This document shows, piece after piece, positions 5,162-10,860 of a DNA stretch of 64,000 bases. Each line of letters begins with the position of its first letter. Within the stretch, counting starts at the first letter, position 1. The stretch comes from Gaiellales bacterium (GTDB lineage Bacteria; Actinomycetota; Thermoleophilia; RBG-16-64-13): assembly GCA_012719395.1 (NCBI GenBank), contig JAAYAL010000031.1, positions 1-64,000 on the forward strand, in the 5' to 3' direction. Below the pieces are notes generated by a model that worked only from the letters and a program-made list of their open reading frames with translations, did no database searches and was not told the DNA's origin. A program made the position numbers and the translations under genes.

Positions 5162-5294
5162 CCTCGCATCTCCGCAGTTGTCATGTGTGGGCGCTTAGAG
5201 GGAAGCTGCTGAATTCTACCTGACGGGACGCGATCTCACCGGACTGAGTTCCCGGGGGCTTCCAGGAGCAGCCTTCTCCAGCCTCTGCAGATAA

Positions 5295-5324
5295 CTTGAC
5301 ATATAGCGACTTAGATTTTATAAT
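5295..5324 (+). promoter_or_regulatory. Consensus sigma-70-type promoter of the dnaK operon with possible HspR box
   Basis: TTGACA at 5296-5301 and TATAAT at 5319-5324 are separated by exactly 17 bp, a perfect vegetative-type promoter 55 bp upstream of the dnaK ATG. The 21-bp stretch 5295-5315 reads CTTGACA-N7-ACTTAGA, matching the HspR inverted repeat (CTTGAGT-N7-ACTCAAG) at 9 of 14 half-site positions and overlapping the -35. Since hspR is the last chaperone-operon regulator gene, autorepression by HspR here is plausible. The box itself is degenerate. Confidence 0.75.
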
Positions 5325-5379
5325 CAGCATTGGCTAATGGACCGCACCGGTCTGAGTACACGGCTCTGGAGGAAAGAGC

Positions 5380-7305
5380 ATGGGCAAAATCATAGGCATC
5401 GACCTGGGCACCACCAACTCCGCCATGGCGGTTCTGGAGGGTGGGGAGCCGACCATCATCCCCAACTCGGAGGGCGGGCGGACCACGCCGTCCGTAGTCG
5501 CTTTCTCCAAGACGGGCGAGCAACTGGTGGGTACCGTGGCCAAGCGCCAGGCCGTGACCAACCCGGAGAACACCGTCTTCTCCATCAAGCGTTTCATGGG
5601 ACGCAAGTACCGGGACGTCTCTGAGGAGATGAAGATCGTCCCCTACAAGGTTGTCGAGGGTCCCAACAGCGACGTACGCGTGGGCATCAAGGGTCAGCAG
5701 TACAGCCCACCGGAAATATCCTCCCGCATCCTGCAGAAACTGAAAAGGGACGCTGAGGCGTTTCTTGGCACGGAGGTCACCGACGCCGTCATCACCATCC
5801 CGGCCTACTTCGACGACGCGCAGCGGCAGGCCACGAGGGATGCCGGGATCATCGCCGGGCTCAACGTGCGCCGCATCATCAACGAACCTACCGCGGCCTC
5901 GTTGGCCTACGGCATGGACAAAGAGCACGAGCAGACCATCCTGGTCTTCGACCTGGGCGGCGGTACCTTCGACGTCTCCATCCTGGAGATCGGTGAGGGC
6001 GTGTTCGAGGTCAAGGCCACCAACGGCGATACCCACCTGGGTGGTGACAACTTCGACAAGGCCATCGTGGATTGGATGGTGGCAGAGTTCCGGCGGGAGA
6101 AGGCTGTTGACCTTTCCCGCGATCGCTCGGCTCTGCAGCGCCTCTACGAGGCAGCGGAGAAGGCCAAGGTGGAATTGTCCAGCATGATGGAGACCACCAT
6201 CAACCAGCCCTTCATCAGCATGGATGACAGCGGCCCGCTGCACCTGGAGATGCAGCTCACGCGGGCCAAGCTTGAGGAATTGACCCGTGAACTGTTGGAG
6301 CGGGTGGTGGGTCCCACCAAGCAGGCCATCAAGGACGCCAACCTCACCCTGGACAAGATCGACCAGGTCATCCTGGTGGGCGGCATGACCCGCATGCCCA
6401 GCGTGCAGGCCAGAGTGCGCGAACTGACCGGCAAGGAGCCCCACAAGGGCATCAATCCGGATGAGGTCGTGGCTTTGGGTGCCGCCATCCAGGGTGGTGT
6501 GCTGGCGGGCGAGGTGAAGGATGTTCTGCTGCTGGACGTGACCCCGCTGTCGCTGGGGATCGAGACCAAGGGTGGCGTCTTCACTCGGCTCATTGACCGC
6601 AACACCACCATCCCCACCCGCAAGAGCGAGATCTTCTCCACGGCCGAGGATGGGCAGAACAGCGTGGAGATTCACGTGCTCCAGGGTGAGCGTGACTTGG
6701 CGGCCTACAACAAGACCCTGGGCAAGTTCCAGCTGACCGGCATCCCGCCCGCGCCGCGCGGCATTCCGCAAATCGAGGTCACCTTTGACATCGACGCCAA
6801 CGGCATCACCCATGTGTCGGCCAAGGACTTGGCCACGGGCAATGAGCAGAAGATTGTCATCAAGAGCTCCAGCGGCCTGGGTGACGACGAGATCAAACGC
6901 ATGGTGCGCGACGCCGAGACTCACGCGGATGATGACCGTCGCAAGAAGGAAGTGGTGGAGGCGCGCAACCAGGGTGAGAACCTGGTCTACTCCACCCGCA
7001 AGACGCTGAAGGACTTCGGCGACAAGGTGGACGGCTCCACTCGCGCTGGCATAGAGCAGGCTGCCAAAGACCTGGAAGACGCACTGAAGACGGACGATAT
7101 CAACGACATCCGTGCCAAGACCAACGCCCTGCAGGAAGCTGCCTACAAACTGTCCGAGGCCGCGTACCAGTCGGCGCAGGCCCAACATGGCGGTGCGCAG
7201 GGGGCCGGCGGGCAGAGCGGCGGCCAGGGAGACGACAGTCACAAGGCCGCGCAGGAAGAGGAAGTTGTGCAGGAAGCAGATTATGAAGTGATCGACGAGG
7301 ACTGA
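5380..7305 (+). CDS. dnaK: Chaperone DnaK (Hsp70)
   Basis: ATP-dependent Hsp70 that binds exposed hydrophobic peptide segments and hands substrates to ClpB or to refolding. The 641-residue product starts [14 protein letters not shown], the phosphate-1 loop of the actin-like ATPase. It keeps the [11 protein letters not shown] and VGGMTRMP signatures and the [11 protein letters not shown] linker into the substrate-binding domain, and ends with a Gly/Gln-rich stretch and the acidic YEVIDED tail. GGAGGAAAGAGC precedes the ATG. It is the first gene of the order dnaK-hsp20-grpE-dnaJ-hspR. Insertion of an hsp20 gene between dnaK and grpE is the only departure from the common actinobacterial arrangement. 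Confidence 0.98.
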
Positions 7306-9866: not shown

Positions 9867-10265
9867 ATGAACCAGGACGAGCGCAGCAGACCGCTCTTCA
9901 TGATCTCAGTCGCCTCTGAACTGGCCGAGATGCATCCGCAGACTCTGCGCATGTACGAAAGGCGGGGTCTCATCTGTCCCAGGAGGTCAGTCAAACAGAC
10001 TCGGCTGTATTCGCTGGAGGACGTGGAGCGTCTTCGCTACATTCAGAAGCTCACCAACGAATTGGGGCTCAATCTTGCCGGGGTGGAACGCGTGCTGGAG
10101 TTGGAGGCGCAGGTGCGCCGGCTTCAGCATGAGGTTGAGCGTATGGGCCGGCGCCTGGAAAAGGCTATCGACGAGGCGGCTCGTGAGGCGGAGGCCATCC
10201 ATCGTTCCTATCGAAGGGAACTGATAACAGTACGGCGTGGGGAATTGGTCCCTCGCAGGCGGTGA
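9867..10265 (+). CDS. hspR: HspR, MerR-family heat-shock repressor
   Basis: Repressor that binds HAIR inverted repeats at dnaK and clpB promoters and uses DnaK as co-repressor in actinobacteria. The 132-residue protein has the MerR-type winged helix at its N-terminus (ISVASELAEMHPQTLRMYERRG, then Tyr-Ser-x2-Asp-Val-x-Arg-Leu). A coiled-coil stretch (about 70-105) follows, with a basic C-terminus. The ATG at 9867 follows GGAGGTGATC; an in-frame GTG at 9861 overlaps that ribosome-binding site and is less likely. Its position at the end of the chaperone operon is the classic arrangement and implies autoregulation. Confidence 0.93.
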   Translation: MNQDERSRPLFMISVASELAEMHPQTLRMYERRGLICPRRSVKQTRLYSLEDVERLRYIQKLTNELGLNLAGVERVLELEAQVRRLQHEVERMGRRLEKAIDEAAREAEAIHRSYRRELITVRRGELVPRRR

Positions 10266-10453
10266 CGGTGGTGGGCGGTCCAAGCAGGGTGAAGAGCTTC
10301 CTTCTCGGGACGCTCTTCGGAGGCCTGATGGGCGTCTTTCTGAACGTGCGGCGGCGTCGTGCGGAGACGACGGGCCTGCTGCATCGCGCCGGCGACCCTC
10401 CGCGCGCTTTTGAAGATGCGGCCTGTCAGACGGCCAGAGACGGTTTCAGCTGA
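10262..10453 (+). CDS. Small putative membrane protein of unknown function
   Basis: A 63-codon frame starts at a GTG overlapping the hspR stop (GTGA), the arrangement expected of a coupled gene. The product has one hydrophobic glycine-rich segment (SFLLGTLFGGLMGVFL) followed by an Arg-rich stretch (RRRR), suggesting a single-pass inner-membrane peptide somewhat like YtxH-type proteins. I recognise no family. It could also be a chance frame, but the tight overlap and the hydrophobic segment followed by positive charge support it. Confidence 0.45.
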   Translation: MTVVGGPSRVKSFLLGTLFGGLMGVFLNVRRRRAETTGLLHRAGDPPRAFEDAACQTARDGFS

Positions 10454-10480
10454 TTGGCACTCCCATATCGAGAGTGCCAG
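10454..10480 (+). promoter_or_regulatory. CIRCE-like operator (HrcA box)
   Basis: TTGGCACTC (10454-10462), nine bases, then GAGTGCCAG (10472-10480). The CIRCE consensus is TTAGCACTC-N9-GAGTGCTAA, so the half-sites match at 8 of 9 and 7 of 9 positions with exact spacing. TTGGCA also serves as a good -35, with CAGAAT 18 bp downstream as a weak -10. A second possible -10 (TATACT, 10522-10527) lies nearer the FmdB-like gene. The site indicates HrcA control of the next gene although the adjacent operon encodes HspR. Confidence 0.75.
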
Positions 10481-10563
10481 AATCAGGTGCGTCGGCGCTT
10501 CCCATCGGTATGGGCACGCGCTATACTTGCCGTAATGTGTAACCAGCCATGGAGGTGGGAAAC

Positions 10564-10860
10564 TTGCCTACCTATGAATATCGTTGTATGGAATGCAGCC
10601 ACCAGTTCGAGCGCTTTCAGAAGATGTCGGATGAGCCGGTTTCGGAGTGTGAGCTCTGTGGTGGCAAAGTCAAACGACTGCTGTTCCCGGTTGCTGTTCA
10701 CTACAAAGGTAGCGGCTTCTACACCACTGACTACGCCCATCGGCACAGCGTGAGCCCACGCACCAACGCCCCCTGCTCCGCGTCGGAAGAGTGCGGTGCG
10801 TCCTCCCAGGGCGGATGCACTGGTGGCAAGGAAGCCTGCTGCACCACGTGTTCTGAATAA
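10564..10860 (+). CDS. FmdB-family zinc-ribbon protein
   Basis: The 98-residue product starts (M)PTYEYRCMECSHQFE, the signature of the FmdB regulatory/zinc-ribbon family, with C-x2-C pairs CMEC and CELC forming the ribbon. FmdB was named as a putative regulator in methylotrophs; the function of most members is unknown. The C-terminal 35 residues hold nine further cysteines, which could bind metal. TTG 10564 is chosen as start because GGAGGT lies 7 bases upstream and family members begin with Pro-Thr-Tyr-Glu-Tyr. A CIRCE-like operator lies 84 bp upstream, so it is probably heat- or stress-induced. Confidence 0.88.
   Translation: MPTYEYRCMECSHQFERFQKMSDEPVSECELCGGKVKRLLFPVAVHYKGSGFYTTDYAHRHSVSPRTNAPCSASEECGASSQGGCTGGKEACCTTCSE

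What the first reader, a model, noticed from the sequence alone, without database searches (positions are those of the whole stretch)
10454..10860. CIRCE-like operator in front of an FmdB zinc-ribbon gene
A near-consensus HrcA box with exact N9 spacing lies upstream of an FmdB-type gene, right after an operon whose repressor is HspR. Classical CIRCE targets are groESL and dnaK, so a zinc-ribbon protein with an extra cysteine-rich tail would be an unusual HrcA regulon member, perhaps a redox- or metal-sensitive chaperone partner.
Basis: partly seen in the sequence, partly recalled or inferred. Interest (0 to 1): 0.6.

Follow-up and report, generated by a model that had tools for sequence, protein, structure and literature searches.

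The report
HrcA operator on a Ruc-like chaperone gene
A small zinc-ribbon gene next to the main heat-shock operon carries the same repressor-binding DNA box as the groESL chaperonin genes; this pairing is conserved in the bacterium's relatives and matches a known redox-activated chaperone of Mycobacterium tuberculosis (Ruc), so it is real but has a precedent.

Summary
The box at 10454-10480 (TTGGCACTC-N9-GAGTGCCAG) is real. It is the only CIRCE in the window (0.02 expected) and one of two in the genome; the other, perfect, precedes groESL. The genome has hrcA (hrcA-dnaJ operon). The FmdB gene really starts at TTG 10564, giving 98 aa with Cys8, 11, 29 and 32, the zinc-cysteine positions of M. 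tuberculosis Ruc (Rv0991c). Ruc is a heat-induced, redox-activated chaperone that HrcA represses directly. So an HrcA-controlled zinc-ribbon chaperone is known, not unusual.

The link is conserved: a box of at most 3 mismatches precedes fmdB in 17/17 readable genomes of the same family and 15/15 of another Thermoleophilia family, 40/90 promoters overall (0.04 expected), and exact boxes occur across Actinomycetota. The cysteine-rich tail is not general (3 of 18 family members).

Two features go beyond the precedent. In this family the box lies wholly upstream of the predicted fmdB core promoter at fixed spacing (28-31 or 41-42 bp to the -10), while at groESL it lies just past the start site. 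In one sister family the zinc cysteines are mostly gone, yet some members keep the box. Best reading: a Ruc-type HrcA regulon member. Heat induction and HrcA binding are untested here.

The parts
10454..10480 (.). CIRCE / HrcA box TTGGCACTC-CCATATCGA-GAGTGCCAG
   Evidence: one of two in the genome; arms near-invariant in 17 relatives while the spacer and flanks vary
10499..10504 (+). weak -35-like hexamer TTCCCA (4/6), 17 bp from the -10
   Evidence: prediction only
10522..10527 (+). predicted -10 TATACT, 41 bp downstream of the box
   Evidence: a hexamer of at least 5/6 in 17 of 17 family members (3.1 expected) at a fixed gap of 28-31 or 41-42 bp
10550..10556 (+). Shine-Dalgarno for the TTG start (GGAGGTG begins at 10551 or just before)
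10564..10860 (+). fmdB / ruc-like gene, 98 aa, TTG start, stop included
10564..10698 (+). zinc ribbon, residues 1-45, Cys8 Cys11 Cys29 Cys32
   Evidence: residues 1-40 pLDDT about 95
10735..10857 (+). low-confidence, probably disordered C-terminal tail with six cysteines, lineage-specific
   Evidence: pLDDT about 50
9867..10265 (+). hspR, last gene of the dnaK-hsp20-grpE-dnaJ-hspR cluster (dnaK 5380-7305)

Best explanation
The gene at 10564-10860 is a member of the Ruc/FmdB family, probably a Ruc orthologue, and belongs to a two-target HrcA regulon (groESL and fmdB) in this Thermoleophilia bacterium. In unstressed cells HrcA binds the box and keeps the downstream promoter (-10 at 10522) low; on heat or other proteotoxic stress HrcA is lost from DNA and the small protein is made together with GroESL. 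By analogy with M. tuberculosis Ruc, the four-cysteine zinc ribbon holds the protein inactive while reduced; oxidation releases zinc and lets the flexible tail hold unfolded proteins and pass them to DnaK/DnaJ/GrpE, whose genes lie next door. Shown here: the box, its conservation, hrcA, the ribbon and its conserved cysteines, the low-confidence tail, absence of Hsp33. Inferred: HrcA binding, repression, heat induction, chaperone activity. Unresolved: how HrcA would act from upstream of the -35 in this family.
For: One box in the window versus 0.02 expected; only one other in the genome, before groES; hrcA followed by dnaJ in the genome. A box with at most 3 mismatches lies within 300 bp of the fmdB start in 17/17 readable family members and 15/15 of family f2; 40/90 promoters overall against 0.04 from shuffling and 0 in downstream controls. 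Arms carry about 1.9 bits per column against 0.2-0.4 in spacer and flanks. An exact box plus an FmdB start occurs in 26/396 Actinomycetota genomes, reversed-pattern control 0, and the downstream proteins are FmdB/Ruc-like. M. tuberculosis HrcA directly represses ruc with groES/groEL1/groEL2, and Ruc is heat-induced, zinc-binding and chaperone-active when oxidised. Hsp33 is absent from all 119 genomes searched, as expected if Ruc fills that role.
Against: No expression or binding data. Families f3, f4 and f6 of the same class have hrcA and fmdB without a box, so the link is dispensable. In this family the box lies upstream of the predicted core promoter, not the usual repressor position. Mycobacterial ruc also uses SigH; no such site was sought here. 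Some sister-family proteins have lost the zinc cysteines, so a redox switch is not universal.
Confidence: 0.8

Rival explanations
1. The inverted repeat is a transcription terminator or mRNA hairpin at the end of the hspR operon, not an operator.
For: It is a perfect 8-bp inverted repeat (TGGCACTC/GAGTGCCA) in the interval after hspR.
Against: No T-run follows. The arm sequence itself is fixed in relatives, not just the pairing, and it stays before fmdB where hspR is not upstream. The same word sits at groESL.
Confidence: 0.03
2. HrcA binds the box but acts from an upstream, activator-like position (predicted centre near -55 or -67) and does not repress fmdB as it does groESL; the gene could be activated or only weakly modulated.
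For: In all 17 family members with a readable promoter the best -10 lies 28-31 or 41-42 bp past the box with poor -35 elements, whereas the 11 groESL promoters examined have TTGACA-17-TAnnAT and the box 9-10 bp after the -10.
Against: The promoter is predicted, not mapped. In families f7 and f9 the box overlaps the predicted promoter and in other Actinomycetota it lies close to the start codon, as expected for repression. No HrcA activator is known to me.
Confidence: 0.15
3. The box is inherited DNA without function, conserved only because the genomes are close relatives.
For: Most of the densest evidence comes from one class, and three families of that class lack the box.
Against: Spacer and flanks have drifted to 0.2-0.4 bits while the arms hold about 1.9 bits; DNA between box and -10 is only 36-40% identical yet of near-constant length.
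Confidence: 0.02

Closest known systems
M. tuberculosis Ruc (Rv0991c), PMC7448276
   Same: FmdB-type ribbon with zinc cysteines at positions 8, 11, 29 and 32, variable disordered C terminus, gene under HrcA with groES/groEL, linked to chaperone genes
   Different: Six-cysteine tail in this genome; box predicted to lie upstream of the core promoter; no SigH evidence here; function not assayed
Classical CIRCE/HrcA regulon (groESL, dnaK)
   Same: TTGGCACTC-N9-GAGTGCCAR operator, hrcA present, groESL also a target
   Different: The dnaK operon here carries HspR and has no CIRCE; the second target is fmdB
Hsp33 redox chaperone
   Same: Four zinc cysteines as a redox switch (by analogy through Ruc)
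   Different: No sequence relation; Hsp33 is absent from this genome and its 118 relatives

Membership tests
CIRCE / HrcA operator | TTAGCACTC-N9-GAGTGCTAA-type inverted repeat | tested here: met
   3 mismatches of 18; GC-rich variant identical at 17 of 18 arm positions to TTGGCACTC-N9-GAGTGCCAA
CIRCE / HrcA operator | hrcA in the same genome | tested here: met
   PF01628 E 1.5e-46, hrcA-dnaJ operon
CIRCE / HrcA operator | conserved in orthologous promoters | tested here: met
   17/17 readable same family, 15/15 f2, sporadic elsewhere, none in f3, f4, f6
CIRCE / HrcA operator | overlaps the promoter or transcription start | tested here: inconclusive
   The predicted -10 is 41 bp downstream of the box; the start site is not mapped
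CIRCE / HrcA operator | HrcA binding and heat induction | not testable with these tools
   needs experiment
Ruc/FmdB redox chaperone | FmdB-type ribbon with CxxC-N17-CxxC | tested here: met
   Cys8, 11, 29, 32; TIGR02605 above cut-off
Ruc/FmdB redox chaperone | disordered hydrophilic C terminus | tested here: met
   residues after about 50 have pLDDT near 50 and no secondary structure; low pLDDT is a proxy for disorder
Ruc/FmdB redox chaperone | zinc release and holdase activity on oxidation | not testable with these tools
   needs protein biochemistry

The most novel reading that the evidence does not exclude
In this Thermoleophilia family HrcA controls fmdB from a fixed site wholly upstream of the core promoter (predicted centre near -55 or -67), unlike its start-site position at groESL in the same genomes. 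The HrcA-fmdB link has also outlived the zinc site in a sister family, where cysteine-free Ruc homologues under CIRCE would be natural always-on chaperones.
Probability: 0.3. Interest if true: 0.6.

Novelty: new member of a known kind. Interest (0 to 1): 0.42.

Why it matters
It extends the HrcA-Ruc link, shown by experiment only in M. tuberculosis as far as the searches here go, to uncultured Thermoleophilia and, by sequence, across Actinomycetota. That supports Ruc as a core heat-shock protein where Hsp33 is missing. The cysteine-free homologues that keep the operator offer a natural test of whether the redox switch is needed for the regulated function.

Tried and rejected
Terminator or hairpin reading: rejected, no T-run, and the arms (not just the pairing) are fixed whatever gene lies upstream. 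Start at ATG 10549: rejected, it overlaps the Shine-Dalgarno. Cysteine-rich tail as a defining part: rejected, 3 of 18 family members. HspR as the regulator of fmdB: no consensus HAIR site anywhere in the window at up to 3 mismatches. The other FmdB paralogue as an HrcA target: no box there. PDB sequence and fold searches gave only weak zinc-ribbon hits such as MCM N-terminal domains and RbpA, no functional lead. One literature query was rejected for syntax.

Full report
Observation. The box TTGGCACTC-CCATATCGA-GAGTGCCAG lies at 10454-10480 and is the only match in the window with up to 3 mismatches to the CIRCE consensus (0.02 expected from shuffles). The genome (2.43 Mb, 98% complete) has two matches in all: this one and a perfect TTGGCACTC-N9-GAGTGCCAA before groES. 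hrcA is present (E 1.5e-46) and is followed by a dnaJ and a prmA-like gene. The neighbouring operon is dnaK-hsp20-grpE-dnaJ-hspR. The downstream gene is an FmdB zinc-ribbon gene. Its start is most likely TTG 10564 behind a Shine-Dalgarno GGAGGTG; the ATG at 10549 overlaps that site, and the relatives align from the TTG position.

Precedent. Becker et al. 2020 (PMC7448276) describe M. tuberculosis Ruc (Rv0991c). HrcA directly represses four genes there, three of the Hsp60/Hsp10 family and ruc. Ruc is heat-induced, coordinates zinc through four cysteines, has a disordered C terminus, gains holdase activity on oxidation and helps DnaKJE refold clients. Cys-to-Ser variants are active without oxidation. 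The cysteines mutated in that work (8, 11, 29, 32) are at the same positions in the window protein. The target is therefore known, not unusual. The paper's main text uses neither the name FmdB nor CIRCE, which may be why the link is easy to miss.

Conservation. Of 119 genomes searched (own plus relatives; the class is Thermoleophilia by the titles of matching records), 116 have an fmdB homologue and 114 hrcA, including all 98 that are at least 90% complete and at most 5% contaminated. A box with at most 3 mismatches lies within 300 bp upstream of the fmdB start in 17 of 17 readable members of the same family (an 18th is masked) and 15 of 15 of f2. It is also in f8 (1/1), f9 (2/2), f7 (4/13, one more at 4 mismatches) and f5 (1/6); f3 (0/8), f4 (0/12) and f6 (0/15) have none. 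Overall 40 of 90 promoters, against 0.04 expected after shuffling, and none of the downstream controls. In the family the arms hold about 1.9 bits per column, the N9 spacer 0.4 and the flanks 0.2-0.3. About 34 of 79 named GTDB loci show it too, including Solirubrobacterales, Thermoleophilaceae and Gaiellales records (partly the same genomes). Across Actinomycetota an exact box plus an FmdB start within 28-88 nt occurs in 26 of 396 genomes from about a dozen families, reversed control 0, and the encoded proteins are Ruc-like. This is a lower bound because the pattern is strict.

Operator geometry. In all 17 family members the best -10 hexamer between box and start scores at least 5/6 (3.1 expected by shuffling) and lies 28-31 bp after the box in 8 genomes or 41-42 bp in 9, although the intervening DNA is only 36-40% identical on average. 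The two classes follow gene order: the longer gap goes with an EAL-domain gene after fmdB (not tested statistically). This puts the box at about -80 to -54 or -68 to -42. The 11 groESL promoters examined in this family have TTGACA-17-TAnnAT with the box 9-10 bp after the -10, at about +4. In f7 the box overlaps the -35, in f9 the -10 TATACT lies inside the N9 spacer before a leaderless ATG, and in other Actinomycetota the box sits 25-85 nt before the start codon. The operator-gene pairing is thus kept while its position relative to the promoter moves. All promoter calls are predictions.

Protein. AlphaFold gives a confident three-stranded ribbon (residues 1-40, pLDDT about 95) and a low-confidence tail (about 50). 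The tail has six cysteines here and in G002, three in G011, and none or one in the other 15. In f7, 10 of 13 homologues have no cysteine at all: RRPDGT and DPETG replace the zinc ligands, but the PxYEYR and HFKGxGFxNTDY core is kept, the predicted ribbon strands remain, and three carry a box with at most 2 mismatches. Since Ruc cysteine mutants are active without oxidation, these may be always-on forms; that is inference. Hsp33 is absent from all 119 genomes, in line with the proposal that Ruc replaces it.

Conclusion. The finding is a sound Ruc-type HrcA regulon member in a new lineage. Binding, repression, heat induction and chaperone activity are inferred. The upstream operator position and the cysteine-free homologues are the parts that go beyond what the papers found here describe.

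Noticed in passing
L083, L095, L115, L126 and other f7 loci: FmdB/Ruc homologues that have lost all four zinc-site cysteines while keeping the core motif; three keep a CIRCE with at most 2 mismatches.
   Followed up: partly
f2 loci L070, L075, L093, L099 and others: Most fmdB boxes of family f2 share a left-arm variant (CTC changed to CAC, GAC or CCC) with a mostly intact right arm; an asymmetric operator, reason unknown.
   Followed up: no
L008:480-700 (G000:C33): A second FmdB paralogue with a cysteine-rich tail, no CIRCE, followed by an ORF that reads like a uracil-DNA glycosylase, about 4 kb from groESL.
   Followed up: partly
window 5290-5330: The dnaK promoter looks like TTGACA-N17-TATAAT with only a poor HAIR-like overlap; no consensus HspR site was found in the window although hspR closes the operon.
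   Followed up: partly
window 10262-10453: A 63-codon ORF with a membrane-like stretch between hspR and the box, no family match and no tblastn hit in the other family loci.
   Followed up: partly
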